Shown one piece after another: positions 49,423 through 64,000 of a stretch of 64,000 nucleotides of DNA; position 1 is the stretch's first letter; each line of letters opens with the position of its first letter. The notes under the pieces were generated by a model that did not search any database, had not been told where the DNA came from, and saw nothing but the letters and a program-made list of their open reading frames with translations. Source of the stretch: Mucilaginibacter myungsuensis (GTDB taxonomy: Bacteria > Bacteroidota > Bacteroidia > Sphingobacteriales > Sphingobacteriaceae); NCBI RefSeq assembly GCF_015222005.1, contig NZ_JADFFL010000002.1:186001-250000 (forward strand). Reading direction: 5' to 3'. Position numbers and translations under genes: made by a program.

Positions 49423-50973
49423 ATGAAGACCTTTCTTAGCCTCATATTCCTCGCTGCCGGGGTCACCGCTTACGCGCAAAAAATGCCGGTCAAGTCCGAT
49501 AAAGGCGCTGTCCCGAAGTTAAAACAAAAAGCGCCGGAGAATGCGAAAGTACTAAAGACCGATACGGTCTACATCACCGGCAAGGTAGCCAACTTTGCCA
49601 AGTATAAAGATTCGGCCAATTCGGTACAGGTGATCATTAATGACCTGGCTTTCGGACAGCAACTCACCTACCGGGCCAAGATCAAAAATGATGGTACTTA
49701 TCGTTTGGCGTTCCTTAAGACCGGGCCGCAGGATGTGATGTTCCAATATCATGAGGATCTGGAGAATATCCTGGTCAACCCCGGCGACCATCTACAGATC
49801 GATTTCGACGCGGCAGGGATGGAAAAGTCATTGTCGTTCAGTGGTGCAGGTGCAACTATGAACAAAGACAGATATGACTTTCAAAAGGCTATGGTGAACG
49901 ATCCGGGTTTGGGTTACAAAGGCAATAATTTTGCACGGTTCATGCAAGCCAGCAAATCTGAAGAAAAGAACGGCCCCGAAGAGCATAAAAAGTTCCTTGC
50001 CGACCGTTATGCAAGGGAGACCGTCTTCCTGAACGATTATATCAAAAAGCACAAACTCGATCCCATATTTATTGGCTGGGCAAAGGCCGATCTTAAGTAT
50101 GACTACTTTGACCAGCTGTTGCGTTACGTTTGGATGCACCCGAGCAAGACAGGCCAAAGCAGTAAAGACTTTAAGATCCCGGCCAGCTATTACAGCGCTA
50201 TCGACTCGGCTAATATTAATGAATTGAGCGGTTCCATCTCGTCTAACTACGGTTCTTTTTTACACGAGTATCAGCGCTATTTTTATAAAAAATATCTGGG
50301 CGAAAAGTGGGGAAATGGCGACGACCGCATGGCATTGCTTTTTAAACAGCAAGCCGGCCTGTCTAAAGATGTGATCTTAAGCCACACCCTGCATGACTGG
50401 GTGCAGAACAGACGATTTGACCAGGTGAAGGCCATTATCGATAAATATAAAGAGAATACAGTACAGCCGACCTTTAAGGCGCGGCTGGCCAGAATGTATC
50501 AGGACGAGGTTGACAAGCTGAATAACTATAACGCAGCTACCGTCGCACAGTCGGCCACCATCCTTAAAACGGATGCTGATAGTATCTTTAACAACATCAT
50601 TACCAAATACAAAGGCAAGGCCGTCTACATAGATCTTTGGGCTACCTGGTGCGGCCCATGTATTGGTGAAATGCCGGGTTCTAAAGAGCTGGCCGGTAAG
50701 CTTAAGGGTAAGGATATCGTATTCCTATACGTCTGTGTCGAATCTGAAGAGAAGAAATGGAAAACCATGGTCAAAGAACTGGGGATCGATGGCGGAGAGA
50801 ACCTCCTGTTGACCAATAATGATTACAAAGCCCTTTGCGAGAAATTCCAGATCAGCGGAATCCCGCGCTACTTATTGGTAGACAAGGGCGGCCGGGTATT
50901 TAATGAGAACGCCCAACGCCCCAGTGAATCCGGGCTGATGGAGGATATTGAAAAATTATTGGCGGCAAGGTGA
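49423..50973 (+). CDS. Secreted TlpA-like thiol-disulfide oxidoreductase with long N-terminal region
   Basis: The 516-residue protein has a signal peptide (FLSLIFLAAGVTAYAQ), a beta-rich N-terminal domain (about 45-140, reminiscent of DUF4369), a helical middle, and a C-terminal thioredoxin domain with the active site WATWCGPC (Cys410, Cys413), followed by ISGIPRYLLVDKGG with the cis-proline. It is probably exported or lipid-free periplasmic and reduces protein disulfides. Such proteins are common in Bacteroidota; the partner is unknown. Confidence 0.88.
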   Translation: MKTFLSLIFLAAGVTAYAQKMPVKSDKGAVPKLKQKAPENAKVLKTDTVYITGKVANFAKYKDSANSVQVIINDLAFGQQLTYRAKIKNDGTYRLAFLKTGPQDVMFQYHEDLENILVNPGDHLQIDFDAAGMEKSLSFSGAGATMNKDRYDFQKAMVNDPGLGYKGNNFARFMQASKSEEKNGPEEHKKFLADRYARETVFLNDYIKKHKLDPIFIGWAKADLKYDYFDQLLRYVWMHPSKTGQSSKDFKIPASYYSAIDSANINELSGSISSNYGSFLHEYQRYFYKKYLGEKWGNGDDRMALLFKQQAGLSKDVILSHTLHDWVQNRRFDQVKAIIDKYKENTVQPTFKARLARMYQDEVDKLNNYNAATVAQSATILKTDADSIFNNIITKYKGKAVYIDLWATWCGPCIGEMPGSKELAGKLKGKDIVFLYVCVESEEKKWKTMVKELGIDGGENLLLTNNDYKALCEKFQISGIPRYLLVDKGGRVFNENAQRPSESGLMEDIEKLLAAR

Positions 50974-51021
50974 TAGCGGTCGCATAGAAAACAAGAGCGG
51001 TCCACACTGATCCTAACGCAA

Positions 51022-51053
51022 AAAGGCGCTATCTTTTTCAAGATAGCGCCTTT
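51022..51053. terminator. Bidirectional terminator between the TlpA-like gene and rplS
   Basis: AAAGGCGCTATCTT (51022-51035) and AAGATAGCGCCTTT (51040-51053) form a perfect 14-bp stem with the loop TTTC. Confidence 0.9.
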
Positions 51054-51080
51054 ACTATTTAGAGCCCTTGGGGGCTAAAA

Positions 51081-51428
51081 TTAAACGCGTTTAGCTTTGA
51101 TACGGGCAGCTTTACCGGTCAATGCACGTAGATAGTACAATTTACTACGACGTACTTTACCAACACTGTTCACGTCGATCTTATCGATGTTTGGCGAGTT
51201 GATCGGGAAGATACGCTCTACACCGATACCGTTAGATACTTTACGTACGGTAAACGTTTCGCTAACACCAGCGCTGTTGCGTTGGATGCACACACCTTGG
51301 TAGATCTGGATACGCTCCTTGTTACCTTCTCTGATCTTGTAGTGTACGCTTACTGTATCACCTGCCTTAAAGGTTGGTACACTCTTTATTGTTACTGATT
51401 GTTCTTCAACAAATTTTACTAAATCCAT
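51081..51428 (-). CDS. rplS: 50S ribosomal protein L19
   Basis: L19 lies at the 30S-50S interface of the ribosome. The 115-residue protein matches the family throughout: [54 protein letters not shown] and [19 protein letters not shown]. It is a single gene here, without the usual rpsP-rimM-trmD partners. The upstream 297 bp are A+T rich. Confidence 0.97.
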
Positions 51429-51725
51429 GATTTTTAGCTCTTAATAGCGATTTTTAGCCCGTAAAAATCGGATTGCAATATTAGACATTATTTTTGGAAA
51501 TAAAAAACCATTTTTAAAATTTTCCACAATTGGTTCTATTGTCCACATTTTTATACTTGATCCGCTGAACATGTGGGATTTAAGTAAAGCGCCATTGCAT
51601 CAAATAATTGAAGAATCCGGCTGTTTTGTTGCAACCTTATAACCACTTAACAATACATCAATAACACCTATATTTGCCTGTCGGCCCTGGGAGGGGCTTA
51701 GCCTACAAAGGCTGAATTTTTAACA
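51429..51725. other. A+T-rich rplS/SprT spacer with two DnaA-box-like sites
   Basis: TTTTCCACA (51520-51528) fits the TTWTNCACA consensus and TTGTCCACA (51539-51547) differs at one base. The spacer must hold the promoters of both divergent genes. No gene was seen. Confidence 0.35.
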
Positions 51726-52337
51726 TTGGATAAAATACAAGTATTAGCACGCTATATGCCGCCCGAAGCTGCCCCGCTGATCGGCCGGTGGATAGACCAT
51801 TTTAAATGCGATTTTAAAATATCGCGCACCCGCGGCACCAAGTTTGGCGACTATCGTGCCCCATTCGACGGCAAGGGGCACCGTATCTCTGTCAATTATG
51901 ATCTTAACGCTTATGCTTTTTTGGTGACCACCGTGCACGAGTTTGCCCACCTGTACACCTGGAACCAGCATCAGCATAAGGTAAAACCCCACGGCACCGA
52001 ATGGAAAGAAAATTTTAAGAAGATGATGCAGCCTTTTTTTGAGAAGGATGTTTTCCCGGCGGATATCAAGTTGGCCATCACTAAATATCTGAATAACCCG
52101 GCAGCATCCAGTTGTTCGGACCTTAATTTGTACCGGTCTCTGCGCAAGTACGACGCGCCAAAAGAGAATATCATCACGGTAGAGAAACTGCCCATGCAAT
52201 CTCTATTTAAAATGAAGGACGGTAGGGTATTTCGTAAGGATGAGAAATTGCGCAAGCGGTATAAATGTACCGAGGTGGCTACGCGGCGGGTATATCTGTT
52301 CAGCCCCGTGGCCGAGGTTGAAGTAGTGGAGCAATAA
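51726..52337 (+). CDS. SprT-like zinc metallopeptidase domain protein
   Basis: The 203-residue protein has HEFAHLYTW (His71, Glu72, His75) and the downstream HGTEWKENF (third ligand His89), the SprT/Spartan-like arrangement. The C-terminal part has LRKRYKCTEVATRRVYLF, where a zinc ribbon would sit, but only one cysteine is present. The best start is TTG at 51726; an ATG 10 codons later is an alternative. Eukaryotic Spartan cleaves DNA-protein crosslinks; the bacterial role is open. Confidence 0.8.
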   Translation: MDKIQVLARYMPPEAAPLIGRWIDHFKCDFKISRTRGTKFGDYRAPFDGKGHRISVNYDLNAYAFLVTTVHEFAHLYTWNQHQHKVKPHGTEWKENFKKMMQPFFEKDVFPADIKLAITKYLNNPAASSCSDLNLYRSLRKYDAPKENIITVEKLPMQSLFKMKDGRVFRKDEKLRKRYKCTEVATRRVYLFSPVAEVEVVEQ

Positions 52338-52408
52338 ACGGTCTGGTGATATCTGCCTATCCCCGCAATTGTAAATAACCACGCGATCGCCTACCTTCAT
52401 AGGCGATT

Positions 52409-53581
52409 ATGGAAACTCCGGCCTTACCCGTTCAAACCTCGCGCATCCACTCTATCGATATCCTTCGGGGCATCATTATGGTGATCATGGCGCTGGATCA
52501 CGTGCGCGATTTTTACTCCAACGCCACTTTCGATCCGCTCGATCTTAGCAAAACATCGGTCATCTTTTTCATGACGCGCTTCATCACGCACTTTTGCGCG
52601 CCGACGTTCATTTTTCTCTCAGGCACCAGCGCATTCCTGTCGTTATCCAAAAAGAAAACCAAGAAAGAGGCATCGCTATTTATGCTGAGCCGCGGCCTGT
52701 GGTTACTGTTTTTAGAGATGACCATCATTAGCTTTGGCTGGCAGGTAGACACGGGCTTCCACACCATATTTGCACAAGTGATCTGGGCCATCGGTTGGAG
52801 TATGGTCATCATGTCGGTACTGATATTTTTGGAGCCGATCTATGTGGGAATAATTGGTTTGATACTGATCTTTGGTCATAACGCATTCGATGGGATCAAG
52901 TCGGCAAGCTTTGGCGAGGGCAAGTTTTTGTGGATGTTCTTACACGAACAGAACTTTTACCAGATCAGCAGCGACAGGGGCATATTTTTCCTTTATCCGC
53001 TGATACCATGGGTTGGGGTAATGGCTGCAGGCTATGCATTTGGCACGCTGTTTAAATTTGGGCCGGATAAACGGCAGGCGCTCTTCATCAAGATCGGCCT
53101 GGCATCAATATTACTTTTCCTGATCTTACGCGGGCTGAATATTTACGGCGATCCGTTCCCATGGCAGCACCAATCCGTTTGGTGGAAGAATATCTTAGCG
53201 GTGCTACGGGTGCAAAAATATCCCCCATCGTTGGCTTACCTTCTTATAACGCTGGGGGTATCCATTACTGCATTAGGTTTATTAGAGCGTACCGACAATA
53301 AAGTAAGCCGCATTTTTACGGTATTTGGCCGTGTGCCCATGTTCTATTACATCCTGCATATCTATCTGATCCATGGTTCGCAAATTATTGGTGCTTTGTT
53401 AAGCGGTGTTACTAAACAGCAATTAGAGCAAGGAGGGCCGGGCAAACCAAATCCTTTTGGTTTTGACCTTTGGGCGGTTTACCTGATATGGTTCACAGTT
53501 GTGTTTATCCTTTATTGGCCTTGCCGCTGGTTTATGAAGGTGAAACAACGCCGTAAGGAATGGTGGCTAAGTTATTTGTAA
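52409..53581 (+). CDS. DUF1624/HGSNAT-type membrane acyltransferase-like protein
   Basis: The 390-residue protein opens with RIHSIDILRGIIMVIMALDHVRDFY, the signature of the DUF1624 family related to heparan-alpha-glucosaminide N-acetyltransferase, and has about ten membrane helices. HVRDFY supplies the conserved histidine and aspartate. It may acetylate an envelope sugar across the membrane. The substrate is unknown. The PhnA-like gene follows 13 bp later. Confidence 0.85.
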   Translation: METPALPVQTSRIHSIDILRGIIMVIMALDHVRDFYSNATFDPLDLSKTSVIFFMTRFITHFCAPTFIFLSGTSAFLSLSKKKTKKEASLFMLSRGLWLLFLEMTIISFGWQVDTGFHTIFAQVIWAIGWSMVIMSVLIFLEPIYVGIIGLILIFGHNAFDGIKSASFGEGKFLWMFLHEQNFYQISSDRGIFFLYPLIPWVGVMAAGYAFGTLFKFGPDKRQALFIKIGLASILLFLILRGLNIYGDPFPWQHQSVWWKNILAVLRVQKYPPSLAYLLITLGVSITALGLLERTDNKVSRIFTVFGRVPMFYYILHIYLIHGSQIIGALLSGVTKQQLEQGGPGKPNPFGFDLWAVYLIWFTVVFILYWPCRWFMKVKQRRKEWWLSYL

Positions 53582-53589
53582 TACCTTTG
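53582..53589 (+). promoter_or_regulatory. -7 box directly before the PhnA-domain gene
   Basis: TACCTTTG, then CCCCC, then the ATG at 53595. It overlaps the DUF1624 stop codon and has the same spacing as at 28334. Confidence 0.55.
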
Positions 53590-53594
53590 CCCCC

Positions 53595-53813
53595 ATGGAC
53601 GAATTGATAGTAAAAGACTGCAACGGCAATATCTTAAAAGATGGCGACTCGGTATCGGTGATCAAAAGCCTGAAGGTGAAGGGCGGCGGCACTACCATTA
53701 AGCAAGGCACCACCGTAAAAAAGATCCGCCTGACGGATGATCCCGCCGAGGTAGACTGCAAAATAGACGGCATGAGCATTGTACTCCGCACCGAGTTTTT
53801 GCGCAAAAAGTAA
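53595..53813 (+). CDS. PhnA/YjdM C-terminal domain protein
   Basis: The 72-residue protein is the PhnA beta-barrel domain alone: VKDCNGNILKDGDSVSVIKSLKVKG is split across the first 30 residues, then GTTVKKIRLTD and VDCKIDGMSIVL. The N-terminal zinc ribbon of full YjdM is missing. Despite its name, the family is not shown to act in phosphonate use. Its own -7 box suggests independent transcription. Confidence 0.85.
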   Translation: MDELIVKDCNGNILKDGDSVSVIKSLKVKGGGTTIKQGTTVKKIRLTDDPAEVDCKIDGMSIVLRTEFLRKK

Positions 53814-53852
53814 AACGGGCGTAAACCTTTAGCGTCAGTTAACCGTCATAGC

Positions 53853-53910
53853 TATGGATATATTGTAAAAGTTACACAACTTAAGCTTGTTAATCTCGTT
53901 AATATCCATA
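53853..53910. promoter_or_regulatory. Inverted repeat upstream of a small membrane protein gene
   Basis: TATGGATAT (53853-53861) and ATATCCATA (53902-53910) are perfect inverses 40 bp apart, about 30 bp before the ATG at 53939. Candidate operator pair. Confidence 0.35.
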
Positions 53911-53938
53911 ACTTACATCAAATTAAATAGTTCGTCTT

Positions 53939-54148
53939 ATGACCAGCAGATCCTTAACCCCATTCGTAGCCGGTATCGTTTGTTTGATAATCGGCGTTTT
54001 CGAGATCTTGCACGGCTTTTTTAAAGAGAGCATCATGACCATCGCTACCGGCATTGCCTTCTTAGTAGCCGGTGTACTTTTCCTGAACAACGACAATGAC
54101 CACGGCAAAAAACAACTGATCCCTGCCCGGGTACGTGCAAGGAATTAA
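53939..54148 (+). CDS. Small two-helix membrane protein of unknown function
   Basis: The 69-residue protein has two hydrophobic helices (about 8-27, FVAGIVCLIIGVFEILHGFF, and 33-50, IMTIATGIAFLVAGVLFL) and a basic, polar C-terminus (KKQLIPARVRARN). No family was recognised. A clear terminator hairpin follows and an inverted repeat precedes it, which supports a real independent gene. Confidence 0.6.
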   Translation: MTSRSLTPFVAGIVCLIIGVFEILHGFFKESIMTIATGIAFLVAGVLFLNNDNDHGKKQLIPARVRARN

Positions 54149-54183
54149 TTGTTAGCATTAAAAGAGTTAAAAAAGATATCAGG

Positions 54184-54214
54184 AGCCTGTCGAGATGATC
54201 GACAGGCTTTTTTT
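54184..54214 (+). terminator. Rho-independent terminator
   Basis: AGCCTGTCGA (54184-54193) pairs with TCGACAGGCT (54199-54208), followed by TTTTTT. It serves the small membrane gene and faces the end of the ComM-like gene. Confidence 0.9.
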
Positions 54215-54222
54215 GTGGGCTT

Positions 54223-55764
54223 TTACCCCGCCCAACCCTCTCTATCTAAACTCCTAAAATGTATCGCCTCGGCCAGGTGTTCTAACAGGATCTCTTCAGA
54301 CCCGGCCAGGTCGGCTATGGTGCGGGATACTTTCAGGATACGGTCGTAAGCGCGGGCGCTGAGGCCGAGTTTCTCCATGGCTTTTTTAAGCAGGGTTTGC
54401 CCGGCGGTGTTGATCTTGCAGACCTCGCGTACCATTTGGGGACTCATCTGCGCATTAGCGTGAAGCTCGGGTTTGCTACTGAAACGCTCTGTCTGGACCT
54501 CGCGGGCCTTAATCACACGTTCGCGGATCTGGTCGCTTTTTTCGGACAGGCGGTCTGATGCAAGCTCGTTAAAGTTTACCGGGGTAACTTCTACGTGCAG
54601 GTCTATGCGATCCAGCAATGGACCAGAAATTTTACTCAGATATTTTTGGACGGTCCCCGGTGGGCAGATGCATTCCTTCTCGGGGTGATTATAATATCCG
54701 CAAGGGCAGGGGTTCATACTGGCGATCAACATAAAACTGCTTGGATAATCTACCGTGAACTTGGCGCGGGATATGGTTACCCGGCGTTCCTCTAAAGGTT
54801 GGCGCATTACCTCTAAGGCAGTCCGTTTAAACTCGGGCAACTCATCCAGGAACAGTACTCCGTTGTGAGCCAGCGATATCTCGCCCGGCTGAGGGTTGCT
54901 CCCGCCACCGACGAGGGCTACGTCCGACACCGTATGGTGTGGGCTACGGAATGGCCTGGTGGTCACCAGCGCATCAGCGGCGGCCAGCTTGCCTGCTACC
55001 GAATGTATCTTGGTGGTCTCCAACGATTCATGCAGACTCAAGGGTGGCAATATCGACGGTAAGCGCTTGGCCAGCATGGTCTTACCCGCTCCCGGCGGAC
55101 CGATCAGTATCACGTTATGACCACCGGCCGCGGCTATTTCTAAAGCGCGTTTGATGTTCTCCTGACCGCGGACATCGCTAAAGTCGCTGTCGTAATTGCT
55201 TAGGCTATCATAAAACTCCTCGCGGGTGTTGACGATGGTGGGCTGCAATTTTTTATCGCCGTTGAAAAACTCGGCAACCTGGGTGATGTTCTCGACGCCG
55301 TAAACAGCAAGGTCATTCACAATTGCAGCTTCGCGGGCGTTCTGTATGGGTAGGATGAATCCTTTAAAACCCTCTTTACGAGCTTGGATAGCAATGGATA
55401 AAGCACCTTTGATGGGTTGCAGGCTGCCGTCTAAAGAAAGCTCGCCCATGATCAGGTATTTATCCAGCTCATCAGCTTCGATCTGTCCGGATGCGGCTAA
55501 GATGGCGGTGGCAATAGTAAGGTCATACGCCGAACCTTCTTTTTTGATATCGGCAGGGGCCATGTTCACCAGTATGCGCTGGCGGGGCATGCGTAAGTCG
55601 TTGGTTTGCAGGGCGGCCTCTACGCGCGACATTGATTCGCGAACGGCACTATCAGGCAGGCCCACTATAAAGTAATTTGGATTGCCGCCCGTAATATTTA
55701 CCTCGATGGTGATGGTTATAGCCTCTATCCCGTAAACGGCGCTCCCGAAAGTTTTAACTAACAA
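54223..55764 (-). CDS. YifB/ComM family Mg-chelatase-like AAA+ ATPase
   Basis: The 513-residue protein has an N-terminal Lon-protease-like ChlI domain ([20 protein letters not shown]), the AAA+ Walker [24 protein letters not shown] (Walker B), and a small cysteine cluster in [20 protein letters not shown]. In competent bacteria ComM is a branch-migration helicase that aids integration of foreign DNA. The same role here is inferred. No other competence genes lie beside it. Confidence 0.94.
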
Positions 55765-56184
55765 TGTAATAAAGATTGATCAACGAAAGATAGACCCATT
55801 TTTGCAATTGCACAAACAAATAGCAAATTGGTTGCGAATTACACCACCGGCACCACCCCCGACCGGCCCCCTTAAACTCCCAAATTTACTGTGCGGAATT
55901 AATGCGCTAAATGCACGGTTTTGATCAAAAAAGTATGCATTTTTTGCGTTTTGTAAATTTTTTACAAAACGCGCAACCGATGGGTTGCGGGTGGGGTTTT
56001 TGGACGACCGAACGACCTCTGACCGGGCTGTCATGGTGAGCGTGTCGAACCATGGTGCGAAGGGGCTTGCCACCCTGCCAGGTCGCGACTGTGCATAGCG
56101 GTGAGCCCCCCACGTCACCCTTCGACAGGCTCAGGATGACCTGCCGCATGTTTACTTTTATTTGCTAAAATAATTAGAGATAAA
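55765..56184. repeat. Gene-free spacer with a GTCAT...ATGAC inverted repeat (56030-56140)
   Basis: GTCATGGTGAGCGTGTCGAA on the left is inverted as TTCGACAGGCTCAGGATGAC on the right, with mismatches. It is a typical Bacteroidota intergenic repeat. It lies at the border between the core gene comM and the A+T-rich accessory pair. Nothing else was recognised in the spacer. Confidence 0.6.
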
Positions 56185-56216
56185 TTTGCGGATGCCAAAT
56201 TCTTTTGTTATATTTG
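56185..56216 (+). promoter_or_regulatory. Strong Bacteroidota promoter upstream of the MazG/helicase module
   Basis: TTTG at 56185-56188 and TATATTTG at 56209-56216 with a 20-bp spacer match the -33/-7 consensus, the best promoter match I noted in the window. Transcription should begin near 56222, about 180 nt before the first start codon. Confidence 0.65.
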
Positions 56217-56217
56217 T

Positions 56218-56402
56218 ACGTGCCTCGAGGCCTTCGATGGCACGTGCCTGTTGCCCGGTTCCGGGGAGTGGGTGGTAAACTGGAAAATTTTCTTTATGTG
56301 ATTTAACCAGTCATCTATGATAGGATGTTTGAATCTGTAAATAACCTCCAGAAGGTCTCGTAATTTAATAAGTTGTTTACTTTTACATAGATTTATAAGT
56401 GT
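56218..56402 (+). ncRNA. Candidate structured leader or small RNA
   Basis: The transcript from the preceding promoter would begin within or next to a stable stem: ACGTGCC-TCGA with TCGA-T-GGCACGT (56218-56245). A CCCGG/CCGGG stem (56254-56265), ACTGG/CCAGT (56279-56311) and CATC-TAT/ATA-GGATG (about 56312-56327) follow. I cannot match it to SRP, 6S, tmRNA or RNase P RNA. It may be an untranslated leader of the operon or a separate RNA. The first stem partly overlaps the predicted transcription start, so its exact 5' end is uncertain. Confidence 0.35.
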
Positions 56403-56732
56403 ATGAGTGAACTCCGCGATCTTCAAAAAATATTAATTGACTTCCGAGATGAACGCGATTGGGCGCAATTTCATAACGCTAAAGATTTAGCTCTTGCTTT
56501 ATCTATCGAGGCGTCTGAGTTGAACGAGTTATTTCTTTGGAAAAAAGCTGAAGAAGCAAATATAGAAAAGGTTAAAGACGAGCTGGCCGATGTGATTGGC
56601 TATGCACTATTACTGGCTGAAAAGTACGACATAGATATCAGACAAATAGTTGTAGATAAAGTAAAAAAGAACGGTGAAAAGTACCCTGTGAATAAAGCCA
56701 AAGGAAACGCTAAAAAATATAACGAGTTATGA
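56403..56732 (+). CDS. MazG-like nucleotide pyrophosphohydrolase
   Basis: The 109-residue all-alpha NTP pyrophosphatase has the metal-binding pattern ExxE...ExxD: Glu36-Glu39 (IEASELNE) and Glu60-Asp63 (DELADVIGYALLLAEKY). It should hydrolyse a (d)NTP to the monophosphate and pyrophosphate. It resembles the small RS21-C6/dCTPase-like group. Its TGA overlaps the ATG of the next gene (ATGA), so the two are translationally coupled and probably work together. The gene is A+T rich compared with flanking core genes, a sign of transfer. Confidence 0.9.
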   Translation: MSELRDLQKILIDFRDERDWAQFHNAKDLALALSIEASELNELFLWKKAEEANIEKVKDELADVIGYALLLAEKYDIDIRQIVVDKVKKNGEKYPVNKAKGNAKKYNEL

Positions 56733-58921
56733 CAAATGATAATTCGTTTCAAGTTAGAAAGTATGATTTTGGACCTGGCTTATTTAACGATTTCCAAAAC
56801 GTTCATTATGCCAAAGACCTTTGGCCGATCGTATACATACTGAGTGATGGTAAAGTAAAAGAAGCTTACGTTGGTGAAACAACTGATACTTACGCTCGTA
56901 TGAGTACTCACCTAAATAGTCCAACGAAAAAGCTTCTATCTACTGTCCATTTGATCAGCAGTGATAAATTTAATAAGTCCGCAACACTCGATATCGAATC
57001 AAATCTAATTAAGTACATATCCGGGGATGGGCAATATCAATTATTAAACGGCAATGTTGGTTTAGCGAATCACAATTATTATCAAAAGAAAGAGGTTTAC
57101 TGGGATATCTTTAAATCCATCTGGAATAAACTTAGGGCCGAAGGAATTACTAAACATTCCATCGAACACATTGATAATTCAGACCTATTTAAGTATTCGC
57201 CGTATAAAAGTCTGACCGTAGAGCAAAGAGAAGGTCTGTTGATCATCCTTAAAGGTCTGTTAAGTACGAGCATCAAAAATATCGTTGTGAACGGCGGCGC
57301 CGGTACCGGAAAAACGATCTTAGCGGTATTTCTTTTTAAACTGCTAAATACTAACAACGAAGATTTCAATTTTAAAGAGTTTGGGGATGATGAAACGGAA
57401 TTTATTCAAACTGTCCTTGAGTTAAAGAAAAGATACCCCGCTCCTCGGATGGCTTTGGTAGTCCCAATGGCTTCATTTAGAAAAACTTTGCAGAAAGTCT
57501 TTAAAAACATAAAAGGGCTTAAGTCAAGCATGGTTATAGGGCCCGCCGATCTGGCAAAGAATAATTTTGATATCGTTTTGGTGGACGAGTCGCATCGTTT
57601 AAGAAGAAGGACTAACCTGGGTGCGTATTTTGGGGCCTTCGATATAGTTAATCAAAGATTAAGTTTAGACAAATATGATTCTACGGAATTAGATTGGGTC
57701 ATAAAACAGTCCGACAAAGCGATACTGTTTTACGATGAACGTCAGTCCGTATCGCCCTCCGACGTTAGGAAAAACGAATTTGACAAGTTAAGGCTGCTGC
57801 CTTCAACTAAAGTCGAGTACCTAAAATCACAGTTCAGGGTAAAAGGTGGTAATGGTTATGTGGATTATATCGACAAGTTACTAAAGAGCCAGCTAAAGAG
57901 ATCCGACAAAATTTATAACTCTAAAGATTATGAATTTGTCCTGTTTGATTCTATCGAAGATATGTTAAAAGAGATCAAACTTAGGGACGCTGAAAATGGG
58001 TTATCGCGAATGGTGGCCGGTTATTCTTGGGAATGGAAATCGAAAAACGACAAGACAGTAAAAGATATACATATTGGCAATGTAAGTCTGCAGTGGAATA
58101 GCGTTTCTGAAGACTATATAAATTCTCCGAATGCGTTAAATGAAGTTGGATGTATACATACTACTCAAGGTTATGATCTTAACTACACAGGTGTGATATT
58201 AGGGAATGAGATCACGTACAATAAGGCAACCGGAGAGATAGAGGTTTTAAGGGAAAATTATTTCGACAAAAGAGGTACCCCGTCGAAAAACGACCCTTCC
58301 AATTTAAAAGATTTCATTATAAATATCTACAAGACCATCATGCTACGGGGCATTAAAGGGACATATGTTTATGTGTGTGATAAAAATTTAAGAGAATATT
58401 TTGCCGAGCATATCGAGAAATACGCTACAGTAAAGGCAGTTACTTATATTGATTATCAGAGCGTCATCCCATTTGTGAACGCTATACCTGTTTATGATCT
58501 TAAAGCAGCAGCGGGTGGTTTTAGTGAACTACAAATGATCGACGAGGAAGATCTGGATTGGATCGAAATACCTGCACGGTATAAACCGTCTAATGATCTT
58601 TTTGCATGTATCGTTGTTGGCGAGTCAATGAATAAAATCATTCCAAATGGGTCTGTTTGCCTATTCAGAAAAGATAATGGCGGTTCTCGCAATGGCAAGA
58701 TAGTGTTAGTTGAGTCGAGCAGCATTCGAGATAAAGAATTTGGATCAGGGTTTACCGTTAAAGAATATTTCAGTACTAAAAAGGTGGAAGATGATCAATG
58801 GGAGCATCAATCGATAATCTTAAAACCCAGATCTCACGACAGCAAATACCGTGATATTGTATTATCGGATGAAGAACTAACGGACTTTAAGGTTAGAGGC
58901 ATTTTTGAATGTGTGCTATAG
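56729..58921 (+). CDS. GIY-YIG nuclease - Schlafen-group-3/DUF2075 helicase - S24 peptidase fusion protein
   Basis: The 730-residue protein has three parts. Residues 30-115 look like a GIY-YIG nuclease: VYI (35-37), AYVG (46-49), Arg57, His61 and Glu90 in TLDIESNLI. Residues 165-590 form a P-loop helicase of the DUF2075 type: Walker A GGAGTGKT (189-196), Walker B VLVDESH (283-289), HTTQGYDLNYTGVILG (477-492), and MLRGIKGTYVYVCD (538-551), an SF1 motif VI. Residues 590-730 resemble a LexA/CI-type S24 peptidase: a possible Ala595-Gly596 cleavage site in AAAGGFSEL, the serine in GESM (Ser633), NGKIVLVE, and Lys678 in FTVKEY. No HTH DNA-binding domain was seen. The gene is A+T rich and coupled to the MazG-like gene. 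I infer a damage- or phage-responsive function; nothing here proves it. Confidence 0.85.
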   Translation: MTNDNSFQVRKYDFGPGLFNDFQNVHYAKDLWPIVYILSDGKVKEAYVGETTDTYARMSTHLNSPTKKLLSTVHLISSDKFNKSATLDIESNLIKYISGDGQYQLLNGNVGLANHNYYQKKEVYWDIFKSIWNKLRAEGITKHSIEHIDNSDLFKYSPYKSLTVEQREGLLIILKGLLSTSIKNIVVNGGAGTGKTILAVFLFKLLNTNNEDFNFKEFGDDETEFIQTVLELKKRYPAPRMALVVPMASFRKTLQKVFKNIKGLKSSMVIGPADLAKNNFDIVLVDESHRLRRRTNLGAYFGAFDIVNQRLSLDKYDSTELDWVIKQSDKAILFYDERQSVSPSDVRKNEFDKLRLLPSTKVEYLKSQFRVKGGNGYVDYIDKLLKSQLKRSDKIYNSKDYEFVLFDSIEDMLKEIKLRDAENGLSRMVAGYSWEWKSKNDKTVKDIHIGNVSLQWNSVSEDYINSPNALNEVGCIHTTQGYDLNYTGVILGNEITYNKATGEIEVLRENYFDKRGTPSKNDPSNLKDFIINIYKTIMLRGIKGTYVYVCDKNLREYFAEHIEKYATVKAVTYIDYQSVIPFVNAIPVYDLKAAAGGFSELQMIDEEDLDWIEIPARYKPSNDLFACIVVGESMNKIIPNGSVCLFRKDNGGSRNGKIVLVESSSIRDKEFGSGFTVKEYFSTKKVEDDQWEHQSIILKPRSHDSKYRDIVLSDEELTDFKVRGIFECVL

Positions 58922-59005
58922 TTTTTCTCTAAACAATGTTCCCATTTTGGCATGAATAAATAGCATTGAGCAAAGAGATAGCGTTCACCTGACTAAATAA
59001 CCTAC

Positions 59006-59488
59006 TCAACTCACTGAGATGAAATATCGTTTCCTGATCATCCACTTTTTTCCGTTTCGTTCTAAAAGGACGATATGCTCTGATAAGCCACCCTTAGAAC
59101 TAAATTTAAGAGTCCCGCATACAGCTTTATCCCCAGAGCGAGAAAAGATCACCGGCGAAAAAATTAGACTTCTGACATTTCCCCCTTTTTGACCGGAATG
59201 CTTTTTCACAAAAACGGGATCAAGTTCGCCGACAACGATATTGGCCGTATCTATGGAAGTTAAGAACTCCATCCATTCCAAGTCCAGAGAATCGCGAACT
59301 CTCAATTCCATCCCGTGAGGGTGCTGAAAATCAAATTTGTTCATCGAGGCTTTAGATAACTTGCTAACTACATTTATTTTCTGATCAAGATCCTTAAGAA
59401 TAGCGTCGTAAACTTTAACGTCCTCTGTTTGGCAAAAAGCATTAGTGCTTAGTATTATGAATGTAAGGAATATTATAGCCCGGCCCAT
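59006..59488 (-). CDS. Small secreted protein of unknown function
   Basis: From ATG 59488 the 160-residue protein has a signal peptide (RAIIFLTFIILSTNAFCQ) and a mixed soluble domain with FSPVIFSRSGDKAVCGTLKFS and IVLLERNGKKWMIRKRYF. The latter resembles the strand pattern of small NTF2-like or lipocalin-like proteins but matches no family I can name. It is convergent with the helicase fusion gene and equally A+T rich, so it may belong to the same transferred patch. The longer frame to 59536 precedes the signal peptide and is unlikely. Confidence 0.6.
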   Translation of the reverse strand: MGRAIIFLTFIILSTNAFCQTEDVKVYDAILKDLDQKINVVSKLSKASMNKFDFQHPHGMELRVRDSLDLEWMEFLTSIDTANIVVGELDPVFVKKHSGQKGGNVRSLIFSPVIFSRSGDKAVCGTLKFSSKGGLSEHIVLLERNGKKWMIRKRYFISVS

Positions 59489-59642
59489 TTGTGTTTGCAA
59501 ACTTTTATTTGAAGATAGTTCATTCCTTTCGAGCATTCAACACAGTACTACATACATTCTCCCAAAACAAATTTTGCTAAATCATTTCAGCAAGCTAAAT
59601 TTATTTTATAAGTTAGCGGCACCGATACATTAAACCTACAGC

Positions 59643-61907
59643 ATGAAGAAAATTTTTATAGCCTTACTGACCCTTTGCGCGGTGTCCCGAACGCAGGCGC
59701 AAGACTTGGTGAAATATGTGAACACCCTGCAGGGAACGGATTCTAACTTCGGCCTGTCTTACGGCAGTACTTACCCTACCGTTGGTCTGCCGTTCGGCGA
59801 GCACTTTTATTCGCCGCAGACCGGCAAGAACGGCGACGGCTGGAAATATCAGTACACGGCCAAAACTATCCGTGGTTTTCAGCAGGTGCATCAGTGCAGC
59901 CCGTGGATGGGCGATTACAACGTTTTCTCGCTGATGCCGATCGAGGGTGAGTTGCGCGTGAACGAGGATAAACGCGCGTCGGCCTTTAAGCACGAGAACG
60001 AGATAGCCAAACCATCGTACTATAAAGTGAAGTTCGATAACGGCATTACTACCGAGATATCGCCGGTGGAGCGTGGTTCGCACATGCGTTTCACGTTCAG
60101 CGGAGCGGGCGATGCTTATTTGGTGTTCGATGGTTTTTTAAAAGAGTGCGATCTGCAGATCATCCCCGAGCAGCGTAAGATAGTCGGCTATGTTAAGAAC
60201 GGTACTTTTATCCCCGGCACTTTCAAGGGGCATTTTGTGATCCAGTTCGATAAACCGTTTGTTAGATACGGCACGTATGCGGGTAAAGATCAGGCGATCA
60301 CTAAAGACAGCAAGACCAGCAAAGGCACGGGCGTTGGTGCGTATCTGCAATTTAAGAAAGGGTCGGTAGTGCAGGCCAAAATGGCATCGTCGTATATCTC
60401 GCCCGAGCAAGCGCAACTTAACCTGGATACCGAGCTGGGCAAATACACCAAGCTGGACGATACCAAAAAAGCTGCCGATGCCGTGTGGAATAAACTGTTA
60501 GGCCGCATTGCGGTAGAAGGCGGCACCGAAGAAGAAAAGGCTACGTTCTATTCCTGCTTCTTCCGCTCTAACCTGTTCTCGCGCAAGTTTTACGATATCA
60601 ACAAAGAGGGCAAGCCATATTATTATAGTCCGTATGACGAGAAGATCCACGAGGGCTATATGTACACCGACAATGGCTTTTGGGATACCTTCCGCACGCA
60701 ATTCCCGCTGGATAATATCATCCACCCCGAGCAGCAGGGTCGCTACATGCAAAGTCTGTTAGATGCGCAAAAGCAAGCCGGCTTTTTCCCTACCTGGTCT
60801 AACCCGGGTATGTCGGGCGTGATGTTGGGTAACCATGCTATCTCTTTATTAACTGACGCCTGGGCAAAGGGCGTCCGCAACTTCGACCCGAAACAAGCTT
60901 TAGAAGCCTACTATCACGAAACCACCAACAAAGGCTGGTGGGGCGGTTCTAACGGCCGCGAAGGTTGGAAAGAATATTTTGCCTTAGGCTTTGTGCCCGT
61001 TGGCGAGGTTTACGAGAGTGCCGCCAAAACCCTGGAGTATGCTTACGACGATTTTTGCGCCTACAACCTGGCCAAAATGACGGGTAACGACTTTTACATG
61101 AATATCTACGCCCGCCAAATGTATAACTACCGCAATATGTTCGACCCCCAAGTAGGCTTTATGCGCGGCCGCCTGCCGGATGGCACTTGGCGCCCCGATT
61201 TTGACCCGATCGAGTGGGGTGGTCCGTTCACCGAGGGCAACTCGTGGCAGTACTCGTGGTCGGTGTTTCAGGATGTGGCCGGTTTGGCTAACCTAATGGG
61301 CGGCGAAAAGAAATTTGCCGAAAAGCTGGATACCTTCTTCAGCATGCCAAGCAGCTTTAAAGTAGGCAGCTACAAGCAAGAGATACACGAGATGAAGGAG
61401 ATGGTGATCGCCAACATGGGCCAATACGCGCATGGCAACCAGCCTTGTATGCACGTGGCTTACCTGTATAACTATGCCCGCCAACCGTGGAAAAGCCAGG
61501 CTAAAGCCCGCGAGGTGATGGAAAAACTATACAACGCCACTCCAAAAGGTTTCCCGGGTGATGAGGACCAAGGCGCCATGTCATCATGGTATGTGATCAG
61601 TGCCATGGGTCTGTACAGCGTTTGCCCGGGTACGGATCAGTACGTGCTGGGCAGCCCTATATTTAATAAAACCACCATCACTTTAGAGAACGGTAAAAAG
61701 TTCACCATTGTGGCTAATAACAACAGCAAAAAGAATGTCTACATCAAGTCGGCCACGCTGAATGGCAAGCCGTTGAACCATAACTTTATCACCCACGCCG
61801 ATCTGATCAACGGTGGCGAAATGGTGTTCGAGATGAGCAATACGCCAAACACATCACGCGGTATCGCGGATGAGGATAAGCCGTTCTCGTTATCGAAAGC
61901 TAATTAG
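59643..61907 (+). CDS. GH92 family glycoside hydrolase (alpha-mannosidase type)
   Basis: The 754-residue exported enzyme starts with a signal peptide (IFIALLTLCAVSRTQAQ). It then has the GH92 N-terminal sandwich (LVKYVNTLQGTDSNFGLSYG, YPTVGLPFG) and an (alpha/alpha)6 barrel: YTDNGFWDTFRTQFPL, GGSNGREGWKEYFALGFVP, EWGGPFTEGNSWQYSW, and the acidic active-site loop GDEDQGAMSSWYVISAMGLY. Known members are calcium-dependent exo-alpha-mannosidases acting on N-glycans or yeast mannan. Linkage specificity cannot be read. No SusCD pair is adjacent. Confidence 0.94.
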   Translation: MKKIFIALLTLCAVSRTQAQDLVKYVNTLQGTDSNFGLSYGSTYPTVGLPFGEHFYSPQTGKNGDGWKYQYTAKTIRGFQQVHQCSPWMGDYNVFSLMPIEGELRVNEDKRASAFKHENEIAKPSYYKVKFDNGITTEISPVERGSHMRFTFSGAGDAYLVFDGFLKECDLQIIPEQRKIVGYVKNGTFIPGTFKGHFVIQFDKPFVRYGTYAGKDQAITKDSKTSKGTGVGAYLQFKKGSVVQAKMASSYISPEQAQLNLDTELGKYTKLDDTKKAADAVWNKLLGRIAVEGGTEEEKATFYSCFFRSNLFSRKFYDINKEGKPYYYSPYDEKIHEGYMYTDNGFWDTFRTQFPLDNIIHPEQQGRYMQSLLDAQKQAGFFPTWSNPGMSGVMLGNHAISLLTDAWAKGVRNFDPKQALEAYYHETTNKGWWGGSNGREGWKEYFALGFVPVGEVYESAAKTLEYAYDDFCAYNLAKMTGNDFYMNIYARQMYNYRNMFDPQVGFMRGRLPDGTWRPDFDPIEWGGPFTEGNSWQYSWSVFQDVAGLANLMGGEKKFAEKLDTFFSMPSSFKVGSYKQEIHEMKEMVIANMGQYAHGNQPCMHVAYLYNYARQPWKSQAKAREVMEKLYNATPKGFPGDEDQGAMSSWYVISAMGLYSVCPGTDQYVLGSPIFNKTTITLENGKKFTIVANNNSKKNVYIKSATLNGKPLNHNFITHADLINGGEMVFEMSNTPNTSRGIADEDKPFSLSKAN

Positions 61908-61957
61908 TCCTACGTGCAGATTTAACATTCTCTTGATCTGAATGATGTATTTTTACG

Positions 61958-61986
61958 TCAGCGCAAAGCCCAATACTTTGCGCTGA
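61958..61986 (+). terminator. Hairpin between the GH92 and phosphatase genes, abutting the next start codon
   Basis: TCAGCGCAAAG (61958-61968) and CTTTGCGCTGA (61976-61986) form a perfect 11-bp stem, followed by TGTTTTC and the ATG at 61994. It could end GH92 transcription or control translation of the phosphatase gene. Confidence 0.6.
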
Positions 61987-61993
61987 TGTTTTC

Positions 61994-63838
61994 ATGTTCA
62001 AACGGACCATCCTTACTGCCTTGGCGACCATCTTCGTCGCCATCAGTGCGAACGCACAATCCCTTCGTATTAACCAAGGGCATAGCCATAACGATTACCA
62101 CCAAAACATTCCCCTGCTGCAAAGCTATTACGCGGGTATGGGTTCTATCGAGGCTGATGTTTTTTTACAGGATGGCAAGCTATATGTAGCGCACGATAAA
62201 AAAGAGATCGAGGTCGACAAAACTTTAGACCGCTGTTATCTGAAACCGCTGGCCGAGCTTTTTAAAAAGAATGGCAACCGCGCCTATGCAGATCCAAAAT
62301 ACAGCTTACAGCTGATCGTAGATATTAAGGAGAACCACATAGGCGTGATCGCCGAGCTGATCAAAGAGTTGGCTCCGTATCCGGGCGTTTTTGATGGTAC
62401 CGCTCGGGGGGGCATTAAGCTGGTTTTGAGCGGCGATATGCCTGTGCCGGCCAACTTCAACAATTTTCCGGCGTATATTTATTACGATGGTAGGCCATAC
62501 ACTACCTATACTGCCGATCAGTTAAAGCGTGTGGCCATGATCAGCGATGCCCTACCTAATTACACCAAGTGGAATGGCAAGGGAACACCAACACCTACCG
62601 ACCTGGTTAAGTTAAAGGACATTGTCATGGCGGCACATAAAAAAGGTAAACCGTTCCGCTTTTGGGCCACGCAGGATAGCCCCAATACCTGGATCGAGCT
62701 GGAAAAGATCGGGGTGGACTGGATCAACACCGACCATCCGCAAGACCTTACAAACTTTTTAAAGAACCGTGCCAAACTTGAATACGTTAACCCTACACCT
62801 TACGCGCTTTACACGCCAACATATAAAAGCGATGGCGCTAATAAAAAAGTCAAGAACGTTATTTTATTGATAGGTGATGGGATGGGTTTGGCGCAGATCC
62901 AGGCCGGGCTGACCGCTAACCATGGGCAGTTGAATATTTATCAATGCCGCAATATCGGCTTTTCGCAAACACGCGCCGCCAATTCAGACAATACCGATTC
63001 GGCTGCCGGGGCTACAGCTATGGCAACGGGTCAAAAAACCAATAACCGCTATATCGGGATGGATCCGCAGGGTAGGCCTTTAACTAACCTGCCCGATATT
63101 TTGGCTAAGGATGGCATTAAAAGCGGTATCATCAGTGCAGGCAATATTACAGACGCTACCCCTGCTTGCTTTTACGCCCACGTTACCGAGCGCGATTCGA
63201 TGCAAATGATCGCCCGGGATCTGTTAAACAGCAAGATCGATCTACTGATCGGCTCCGGCGCGAAATACTTCCAAAACAATAAGGATAAAGCGCTGGTGCA
63301 AAAGCTGGCAGATAAACAATTCCGCTCGTTTACTTCTTTGGCCGATGCAGAAAGCGTGAAGACGGGCAAACAACTGATCTTGCTGCCGGATGCTGATACC
63401 CGCCGCATGTTGGATGGCCGTGGCGATATGCTTGGCCGCTCGCTAAAACACGGTATCGAAGTACTATCTAAAAACAAAAAGGGTTTCTTTGTGATGGCTG
63501 AGGGCGCGCAGATAGATCACGGCGGCCACGCTAACGATCTGCCATTTGTAATAACCGAACTGCACGATTTTGACAAGACCGTTGCCGAGGCCTTAAAATT
63601 TGCCGATCAGGATGGCGAGACTTTGGTGATCATCACTGCCGATCATGAGACCGGCGGATTGACCCTGTTAGATGCTTCAACAGAAAAGGGCAGCGTACTG
63701 ACATCGTTCAGCACCAACGATCACACCAGTATCAACGTACCGGTTTTTGCTTACGGCCCGCACTCGCAGGACTTTACGGGAACTTATCAAAACACCGAAA
63801 TCTTTAAAAAAATATTGGCTCTGATAACCGGAAAATAA
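61994..63838 (+). CDS. Exported fusion of an AIM6/PI-PLC-like phosphodiesterase domain and alkaline phosphatase
   Basis: The 614-residue protein has a signal peptide (LTALATIFVAISANAQ). A TIM-barrel-like domain (about 27-256) begins GHSHNDYHQNIPLLQSYYAG, contains SIEADVFLQDGKLYVAHD, and resembles AIM6/PI-PLC-like phosphodiesterases. A full alkaline phosphatase domain (about 285-614) follows: LLIGDGMGLAQ with Asp295, nucleophile Ser336 in TDSAAGATAMATG, EGAQIDHGGHAND and ITADHETGG. The two could act in turn, releasing a phosphomonoester and then phosphate. It follows GH92 in the same direction. Confidence 0.9.
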   Translation: MFKRTILTALATIFVAISANAQSLRINQGHSHNDYHQNIPLLQSYYAGMGSIEADVFLQDGKLYVAHDKKEIEVDKTLDRCYLKPLAELFKKNGNRAYADPKYSLQLIVDIKENHIGVIAELIKELAPYPGVFDGTARGGIKLVLSGDMPVPANFNNFPAYIYYDGRPYTTYTADQLKRVAMISDALPNYTKWNGKGTPTPTDLVKLKDIVMAAHKKGKPFRFWATQDSPNTWIELEKIGVDWINTDHPQDLTNFLKNRAKLEYVNPTPYALYTPTYKSDGANKKVKNVILLIGDGMGLAQIQAGLTANHGQLNIYQCRNIGFSQTRAANSDNTDSAAGATAMATGQKTNNRYIGMDPQGRPLTNLPDILAKDGIKSGIISAGNITDATPACFYAHVTERDSMQMIARDLLNSKIDLLIGSGAKYFQNNKDKALVQKLADKQFRSFTSLADAESVKTGKQLILLPDADTRRMLDGRGDMLGRSLKHGIEVLSKNKKGFFVMAEGAQIDHGGHANDLPFVITELHDFDKTVAEALKFADQDGETLVIITADHETGGLTLLDASTEKGSVLTSFSTNDHTSINVPVFAYGPHSQDFTGTYQNTEIFKKILALITGK

Positions 63839-63870
63839 CGACAGTAGATTTTTCTGCAAATTTTGCGTTT

Positions 63871-63891
63871 AACTTACATTAATTGTAGGTT
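63871..63891. promoter_or_regulatory. Palindromic operator candidate before the NUDIX gene
   Basis: AACTTACA-TTAAT-TGTAGGTT is a palindrome with one mismatch per arm, ending 5 nt before the ATG at 63897. NUDIX-type regulators (NrtR/AraR-like) bind such sites near their own genes. Confidence 0.5.
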
Positions 63892-63896
63892 TGGGT

Positions 63897-64000
63897 ATGG
63901 CTGCTATCCAAAATATCAAGGTCTCTGTTGATGCTGTAGTGTTTGGTTACACTTCTAAAGAGGGCCTGTCGGTATTGTTGATCAAACGCAAAATAGAACC
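63897..64000 (+). CDS. NUDIX hydrolase-type protein, N-terminus only
   Basis: The open frame runs 34 residues to the window edge: it begins MAAIQNIKVSVDAVVFGY and reaches SVLLIKRKIEP. This is the typical opening of NUDIX domains in NrtR/AraR-type regulators of Bacteroidota, which carry a winged helix at the C-terminus. The NUDIX box itself lies beyond the window. The palindrome directly upstream supports a regulator, but this remains inference. Confidence 0.65.
   Translation, partial: MAAIQNIKVSVDAVVFGYTSKEGLSVLLIKRKIE

What the first reader, a model, noticed from the sequence alone, without database searches (positions are those of the whole stretch)
56403..58921. Two-gene module: MazG-like pyrophosphohydrolase coupled to a GIY-YIG / Schlafen-like helicase / S24 peptidase fusion
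Seen: a 109-residue protein with the MazG ExxE/ExxD pattern overlaps by ATGA a 730-residue protein. The latter carries GIY-YIG residues (VYI, AYVG, R57, H61, E90), SF1 helicase motifs of the DUF2075/SLFN-g3 group, and an S24 peptidase-like C-terminus. The pair is A+T rich, stands alone between core genes and borders intergenic repeats. Known: GIY-YIG, Schlafen-type helicase and NTP-degrading enzymes each recur in antiviral systems, and S24 peptidases sense DNA damage through RecA. Inference: a self-contained defence or stress system in which self-cleavage switches a nuclease-helicase and the partner drains a nucleotide pool. I do not know a described system with this exact architecture.
Basis: partly seen in the sequence, partly recalled or inferred. 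Interest (0 to 1): 0.9.

Follow-up and report, generated by a model that had tools for sequence, protein, structure and literature searches.

The report
Restriction nuclease with self-cleaving off-switch
Two overlapping bacterial genes encode a predicted nucleotide-cleaning enzyme and a predicted nuclease-helicase that ends in a domain of the LexA self-cutting family; relatives of that same domain sit on several unrelated restriction enzymes, where it likely lets DNA damage switch the DNA-cutting defence off.

Summary
56403-56732 encodes a dCTPP1-type MazG protein; it overlaps (ATGA) 56729-58921, a GIY-YIG / SLFN-g3 helicase / S24 fusion. MazG lies upstream in 69 of 71 distinct related loci.

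The new point is the S24 domain. Among 395 Bacteroidota genomes, 18 held S24 domains of this kind: 10 on this protein, 5 on SauUSI-like type IV enzymes, 2 on type I HsdR, 1 cut by a contig end. A database search adds type ISP enzymes. All 57 capped domains sampled group apart from 10 free S24 domains (98/96). A LexA-like site, [AVI]-A-A^G, is present in 348 of 360 capped proteins.

Best reading (inferred): RecA filaments trigger self-cleavage, leaving an Ala-Ala tail that marks the nuclease for ClpXP: built-in restriction alleviation. In some HsdRs the cap sits between nuclease and motor, which favours off over on.

The partners (MazG here, NUDIX beside the SauUSI-like enzyme) resemble modified-dCTP-destroying enzymes, but carriers do not avoid C5-methyltransferases (22 of 36 against 180 of 395), and neighbours show no clear defence enrichment. 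Nothing was tested at the bench.

The parts
56403..56732 (+). 109-aa all-alpha NTP pyrophosphohydrolase, MazG-like, dCTPP1 (RS21-C6) type; E36xxE39, E60xxD63, W20, H24, W46
   Evidence: those residues invariant in 72 of 72 aligned partners
56729..56732 (+). ATGA overlap of the two genes
   Evidence: sequence; a -4 overlap is the commonest spacing, 44 of 69 distinct loci with MazG
56729..58921 (+). 730-aa GIY-YIG / SLFN-g3 helicase / S24 fusion
   Evidence: the 120 relatives listed are 66-75% identical (self apart) and carry PF09848 and PF00717
56816..57064 (+). GIY-YIG nuclease-like domain (residues about 30-112)
   Evidence: Pfam 21.1 bits here, over cut-off in homologues; Y36, Y47, G49, R57, H61, E90, N107 in 49 of 49
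57278..58381 (+). Superfamily 1 helicase of the SLFN-g3 / DUF2075 group (residues 184-551)
58481..58918 (+). S24 (LexA-type) domain (residues 585-730)
58511..58516 (+). predicted self-cleavage site A595^G596 (K-A-A-A^G-G)
   Evidence: [AVI]AA^G in 111 of 120 relatives of this protein
58625..58627 (+). predicted catalytic Ser633
   Evidence: Ser in 132 of 132
58760..58762 (+). predicted catalytic Lys678
   Evidence: Lys in 132 of 132

Best explanation
The locus encodes a predicted restriction-type nuclease-helicase with a predicted nucleotide-cleaning partner, and its LexA-family tail likely cuts itself off when RecA filaments form, which would remove the enzyme after DNA damage. Steps. Shown by sequence: the GIY-YIG, SF1 helicase and S24 domains, an intact Ser/Lys dyad, a LexA-like A^G site, the conserved MazG partner, and the same S24 subfamily on type I, type ISP and SauUSI-like restriction enzymes. 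Inferred: the helicase tracks along invading DNA and the GIY-YIG domain nicks or cuts it. When the host's own DNA is damaged, RecA on single-stranded DNA stimulates S24 self-cleavage after Ala595. The nuclease-helicase fragment then ends in -AAA, like the LexA fragment (-VAA, recalled) and the host's ssrA tag (-LAA), and ClpXP would destroy it: restriction alleviation built into the enzyme. The MazG protein would clear modified dCTP from the pool so that host DNA does not come to look foreign, or otherwise protect the host; this step is the weakest.
For: Domain and residue evidence. S24 fold. S24 restricted to motor-driven restriction-type enzymes: 18 genomes of 395, namely 10 this family, 5 DUF3427/SauUSI-like, 2 HsdR, 1 cut by a contig end with an AAAG site; type ISP and 80 HsdR among the best 120 of 1145 hits; the best 120 of 1346 hits of the second search are DUF3427-type. 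One cap clade, 57 capped against 10 free domains, 98/96; HsdR and ISP caps interleave, so the cap has been exchanged. Ala at P2, which 11 of 13 free S24 sites in the same genomes lack (read by eye), is present in nearly every capped protein, as a degron but not mere cleavage would need. In P0128 and P0180 the cap sits between HSDR_N (4-213) and the SWI2/SNF2 motor (from 461), so cleavage would part nuclease from motor. Host tmRNA tag is GENNYALAA. EcoKI restriction alleviation works by ClpXP destroying HsdR (PMC11109961, passages). Physical linkage with SauUSI-like enzymes: L024, L012, and a four-gene array NUDIX / SauUSI-like / MazG / GIY-YIG-SLFN on a Lactiplantibacillus plasmid, L128.
Against: No cleavage, nuclease or anti-phage activity was measured. 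Homologues without S24 end near residue 564-568, so the cleaved product resembles a natural complete enzyme, which also fits activation. EcoKI alleviation is not an SOS function (a lexA1 strain keeps it). Neighbouring genes show no clear enrichment of defence models over controls. Two free S24 proteins also have AA at P2-P1. Three HsdR exceptions place the cap internally, so a tail-degron model does not fit the motor half there. Nine of 120 relatives of this protein and 3 of 120 SauUSI-like ones depart from the [AVI]AAG site.
Confidence: 0.48

Rival explanations
1. On-switch: the S24 tail inhibits the nuclease-helicase, and RecA-driven self-cleavage during infection or DNA damage releases an active enzyme that destroys phage or host DNA.
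For: S24-free homologues end near residues 564-568 and keep all nuclease and helicase residues, so the fragment left by cleavage should be a complete enzyme. Phage infection can raise RecA activity (established knowledge).
Against: Ala at P2 is kept although most free S24 sites do without it. In P0128 and P0180 cleavage would separate nuclease from motor. Type I, ISP and SauUSI-like enzymes work without a cap elsewhere: three of eight Bacteroidota DUF3427 proteins lack it.
Confidence: 0.25
2. One reading: an abortive or stress system in which the MazG enzyme drains a nucleotide pool when the nuclease-helicase is triggered.
For: MazG is tightly coupled: 69 of 71 distinct loci; partner distances correlate, r = 0.49, 0 of 1000 permutations as high, 60 pairs. 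Related dCTPP1 takes dCTP as well as 5-modified dCTP (PMC7162842, abstract).
Against: The analogous partner of the SauUSI-like enzyme is a MutT/NudG-type NUDIX protein, a type known for cleaning abnormal nucleotides, which points to pool cleaning rather than draining.
Confidence: 0.12
3. A DNA-repair or replication-fork module: an SOS-controlled structure-specific GIY-YIG nuclease-helicase with a pool-sanitising partner, not a defence system.
For: S24 and dNTP sanitation are classical repair themes; helicase matches include UvrD, Dda and fork helicases; no defence-island enrichment.
Against: Patchy: 9 of 149 genomes of the genus carry this type. The cap's other carriers are restriction enzymes. 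Tandem arrays with SauUSI-like genes.
Confidence: 0.1
4. The S24 domain no longer cleaves and serves only as a dimerisation or RecA-binding part.
For: No cleavage assay exists for it.
Against: Ser and Lys are kept in 132 of 132, and the A^G pair in most; loss of cleavage would let them drift.
Confidence: 0.05

Closest known systems
SauUSI-type type IV restriction enzyme (PLD - SF2 helicase - DUF3427)
   Same: One-chain nuclease-helicase; paired with a small nucleotide pyrophosphohydrolase (NUDIX upstream in 8 of 8 Bacteroidota genomes); often the same S24 cap (5 of 8); found in tandem with this system (L024, L012, L128). SauUSI cuts m5C and hm5C DNA (PMC3874153, passages).
   Different: No sequence relation outside the cap: GIY-YIG instead of PLD, SF1 SLFN-g3 instead of SF2, no DUF3427, MazG instead of NUDIX.
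Type I restriction HsdR, and EcoKI restriction alleviation by ClpXP
   Same: HsdR proteins with the same S24 cap and cleavage site; alleviation by removing the motor-nuclease subunit is the process proposed here.
   Different: EcoKI itself has no such cap as far as I recall, and its alleviation does not need LexA cleavage (PMC11109961, passages).
LexA / UmuD / phage repressor (peptidase S24)
   Same: Fold, Ser-Lys dyad, A^G site.
   Different: Fused to a DNA-cutting motor enzyme, not to a DNA-binding repressor domain; separate clade from free S24 domains of the same genomes.
Schlafen proteins (SLFN11/13/14)
   Different: No Schlafen RNase core was found by Pfam; the effector end is GIY-YIG-like.
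dCTPP1 / RS21-C6 (human and mouse dCTP pyrophosphatase)
   Same: 1.5e-18 by sequence; aligned pocket and metal-site residues.
   Different: Encoded in an operon with a nuclease-helicase; substrate not tested.

Membership tests
Peptidase S24 (LexA/UmuD) | Pfam profile over its cut-off, Ser/Lys dyad, A-G cleavage site, LexA fold | tested here: met
Peptidase S24 (LexA/UmuD) | RecA-stimulated self-cleavage | not testable with these tools
   needs an assay
GIY-YIG nucleases | profile match and catalytic Tyr, Arg, Glu, Asn | tested here: met
   21.1 bits against cut-off 22.6 in this protein, over cut-off in L047, L080, L082, L124, L128; residues in 49 of 49
GIY-YIG nucleases | GIY-YIG fold | tested here: inconclusive
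SLFN-g3 / DUF2075 helicases | PF09848 over its cut-off, invariant Walker A Lys195 and Walker B Asp286-Glu287 | tested here: met
Schlafen RNases | Schlafen RNase core domain | tested here: not met
   absent from the Pfam matches up to E 1
MazG / dCTPP1 NTP pyrophosphohydrolases | ExxE...ExxD metal site and dCTPP1-type pocket (Trp, His, Trp; pocket roles recalled) | tested here: met
   72 of 72; alignment to dCTPP1
MazG / dCTPP1 NTP pyrophosphohydrolases | hydrolysis of (5-modified) dCTP | not testable with these tools
   needs an assay
SauUSI-type type IV restriction enzymes | PLD nuclease, SF2 helicase, DUF3427 | tested here: not met
   none of these in the window protein
Modification-dependent (type IV) restriction in general | cuts only modified DNA; expected to avoid C5-methyltransferases if m5C is the target | tested here: inconclusive
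   PF00145 in 22 of 36 carrier genomes against 180 of 395 of the phylum: no avoidance; site-specific or other modification not excluded
Catalogued defence systems (PADLOC 2.0.0) | full-length match to a system protein | tested here: not met
   only partial matches: Nhi 8.2e-10, AbiO 6.5e-9, PDC-S14 9.6e-7

The most novel reading that the evidence does not exclude
A portable, RecA-read self-destruct cap: one dedicated S24 lineage has been exchanged among unrelated motor-driven restriction enzymes (type I HsdR, type ISP, SauUSI-like type IV, MazG-linked GIY-YIG or other SLFN-g3 nuclease-helicases). DNA damage makes each enzyme cut itself, baring an Ala-Ala tail for ClpXP or parting nuclease from motor, so that restriction is switched off exactly when host DNA is being repaired; the paired MazG or NUDIX enzyme keeps modified dCTP out of host DNA.
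Probability: 0.38. Interest if true: 0.92.

Novelty: new variant of a known kind. Interest (0 to 1): 0.8.

Why it matters
How bacteria keep restriction enzymes from killing them during DNA repair is understood mainly for EcoKI. A LexA-type self-cleaving cap on several enzyme classes would be a general, enzyme-borne answer, testable by changing one serine. It would also tie the SOS signal directly to defence, and give a reason why small nucleotide-cleaning enzymes travel with restriction nucleases.

Tried and rejected
Rejected or unsupported. (1) Defence-island test: 144 of 164 neighbours (within 7 kb, 12 loci; a 13th locus and 3 long or distant proteins were left out to fit the limits) against 144 of 292 control ORFs from other parts of carrier genomes. 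At E <= 1e-25 the neighbours matched 31 PADLOC families (25 shown, at most 2 members each), the controls 9 (1 member each). The matches are few and overlap (PDC-S05 and SoFic on both sides), so I claim no enrichment. (2) Avoidance of C5-methyltransferases: not seen. (3) Empty site: upstream of ComM, 29 relatives of the genus lack the module but differ from each other, so insertion could not be shown; the GH92-like neighbour did not help. (4) Phage origin: 28 of 50,697 phage records match, none over 80% of the protein; no relative among viral contigs. Plasmids: 38 of 72,556, none over 80%. (5) RNA families: none over threshold at 50000-64000. (6) The N-terminal fold comparison was inconclusive. 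(7) I first took the S24-bearing 1194 and 1217-aa hits (G446, G378) for the DUF3427 type; they are HsdR. The 'free' 143-aa S24 of G505 lies at a contig end and has the AAAG site. (8) The NUDIX partner matches E. coli MutT (5.3e-16) slightly better than NudG (1e-13), and its best match, 3gwy, is of undetermined function, so its 5-methyl-dCTP preference is a guess.

Literature. Full-text searches that found no description: (DUF2075, COG3410, DUF3427, GIY-YIG, MazG, Schlafen, S24, SauUSI, Nudix in combinations). The library lacks most subscription journals and bioRxiv; three papers that I sought by id were not held. So 'undescribed' is limited to these searches. I saw passages only of PMC12839542, PMC3874153, PMC7159879, PMC7641849, PMC10742078, PMC5389931, PMC7162842 and PMC11109961. 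That the LexA fragment ends in -VAA and is a ClpXP substrate is recalled.
Full report

2. Conservation. A protein search gave 6675 relatives at E <= 1e-3 among 7998 scored; the 120 listed (66-75% identical, self apart) all carry PF09848 and PF00717. In 77 loci with a good match, 71 distinct, MazG lies directly upstream in 69; the two others are L047 (Lachnospiraceae, none) and L067 (cut by a contig end); the commonest spacing is -4 (44 of 69). MazG metal-site and pocket residues W20, H24, E36, E39, W46, E60, D63 are invariant in 72 of 72 loci, duplicates included. The best PDB relative is dCTPP1 / RS21-C6. Distances of the two partners correlate (r = 0.49, 60 pairs, 0 of 1000 permutations as high). 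Distribution is patchy: 14 of 149 genomes of the genus have a match, 9 of them (one partial) of this type; 22 of 395 in the phylum have some match, other types included. Actinobacterial (L048-L053, L055), Firmicutes (L047, L123, L124, L128) and one flavobacterial (L081) relative lack S24 and end near residue 564-568 of the window protein or a little beyond. On plasmids of Paenibacillus and Enterococcus no MazG was seen beside them; the Paenibacillus one lies next to an MrcB_N-HNH protein.

3. A parallel module. Searching for the S24 domain led to a second two-gene module: a NUDIX protein overlapping or abutting a PLD / SF2 helicase / DUF3427 protein with the same S24 cap. PADLOC calls the large protein mREase_IV (2.4e-234) and the NUDIX PDC-S07 (1.1e-46). 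The domain layout is that of SauUSI, an m5C/hm5C-dependent enzyme (PMC3874153, passages). In 395 Bacteroidota genomes 8 have it at E <= 1e-100; NUDIX is directly upstream in 8 of 8, and 5 of 8 have the cap. Outside Bacteroidota or without the cap, NUDIX precedes it in 3 of 4 plasmid records that I opened (not). MutT homologues beside SauUSI homologues of Streptococcus are mentioned in a figure legend of PMC7641849. The two modules lie side by side in Arenibacter (L024) and, the second broken, in a Flavobacterium MAG (L012), and form a four-gene array on a Lactiplantibacillus plasmid (L128).

4. The cap. The S24 domain alone found 18 of 395 genomes at E <= 1e-10: 10 on this protein (one copy, G461, is broken by a stop), 5 on the SauUSI-like protein, 2 on type I HsdR inside operons with HsdM and HsdS (G378, G446), and one at a contig end (G505). 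With the HsdR cap as query, 1145 proteins matched; the best 120 comprise 80 HsdR, 39 type ISP and one SLFN-g3 protein by their Pfam labels. With the SauUSI-like cap, 1346 matched; the best 120 are DUF3427 proteins. A tree of 57 capped and 10 free S24 domains sets all capped ones on one side (98/96); caps of HsdR, ISP and SLFN-g3 P0139 are mixed (99/97), and those of the two Bacteroidota modules lie together (95/85). The program warns of long branches and an unsettled bootstrap, and one origin is not proved. The simplest reading is a dedicated cap that has moved between enzymes.

5. The cleavage site. In the 360 proteins listed by the three searches, [AVI]AA^G is present in 111 of 120 (this family), 117 of 120 (SauUSI-like), 80 of 80 HsdR, 39 of 39 ISP and 1 of 1 SLFN-g3; 348 of 360 in all, close relatives included. 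Ser and Lys are in 132 of 132 of this family. Among free S24 proteins of the same genomes, P2 is Ala in 2 of the 13 whose site I could read by eye; three more had no A-G site and one no S24 that I could place. P2 is thus not fixed by the cleavage chemistry. Cleavage would leave the capped enzymes with -AAA or -VAA at the end. The host's own tmRNA tag ends in -LAA, and the LexA fragment ends in -VAA and goes to ClpXP (recalled). In P0128 and P0180 the cap lies at 323-462, between the HSDR_N nuclease (to 213) and the motor (from 461); P0219 has its site at a like place. There, cleavage would part nuclease from motor.

6. Mechanism. I commit to an off-switch: RecA filaments trigger self-cleavage and so remove the nuclease when host DNA is damaged. 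EcoKI is held in check in such a way, by ClpXP destruction of HsdR, though not through SOS (PMC11109961, passages). The opposite polarity stays open, since natural S24-free enzymes look like the cleaved product.

7. The partner. MazG of the dCTPP1 type and NUDIX of the MutT/NudG type are unrelated folds (established knowledge) that meet in one activity: Orf135 (NudG), RS21-C6 and DCTPP1 hydrolyse 5-methyl-dCTP (PMC10742078, passage). A modification-dependent nuclease would profit from a partner that keeps modified dCTP out of host DNA. Against this: the NUDIX protein is as near to MutT as to NudG; carriers of this system have C5-methyltransferase genes at least as often as others (22 of 36, against 180 of 395; the 36 are those I submitted of 58 loci); and the window's own genome has three PF00145 matches. 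I hold the sanitiser step at about one in three.

8. Defence or not. No catalogued system covers the pair, and neighbouring genes are not clearly enriched in defence models. The case for restriction rests on the company that the cap keeps, the tandem arrays, the patchy spread and the domain make-up.

9. Verdict. The locus is a real, widespread two-gene module. The pair by itself is a new variant of the nuclease-helicase kind. The wider finding, a self-cleaving LexA-type cap shared by several classes of restriction enzyme, is what deserves a bench test.

Noticed in passing
L128:3559-8954: Four-gene array on a Lactiplantibacillus plantarum plasmid: NUDIX, SauUSI-like PLD-helicase-DUF3427, MazG, GIY-YIG-SLFN-g3, without S24 caps.
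   Followed up: partly
P0128, P0180, P0219: HsdR proteins with the S24 domain (or its cleavage site) near residue 325, between nuclease and motor domains in the two scanned by Pfam.
   Followed up: partly
P0134: 1827-aa type ISP restriction-modification protein (Mrr_cat_2, helicase, ISP coupler, methylase, specificity domain) ending in the same S24 cap.
   Followed up: partly
L057, L068-L072, L087-L090, L095: A third MazG-linked type: about 620-aa SLFN-g3 helicase with another N-terminus that by eye has a PD-(D/E)XK-like motif (NERD hit 0.014 in L057); MazG in 11 of 12 loci looked at, not in L093. P0139 is a capped form.
   Followed up: partly
L123:2564-3841: MrcB_N-HNH protein directly upstream of a GIY-YIG-SLFN-g3 gene on a Paenibacillus plasmid; it resembles modification-dependent endonucleases.
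   Followed up: no
L122:3131-5601: Halomonas plasmid: SLFN-g3 helicase and an S24 domain with an IAAG site in overlapping, different frames; a broken or frameshifted fusion.
   Followed up: no
L103:7164-9128: In the S24-free flavobacterial copy a 654-aa TPR protein gene abuts MazG on the upstream side.
   Followed up: no
L138:6758-7987: An AAA_21/AAA_15 ATPase gene lies between HsdS and the capped HsdR in a type I operon.
   Followed up: no
window:56119-56141: A stretch that looks like a dispersed intergenic repeat; single copy in the window; the whole genome was not searched for it.
   Followed up: no
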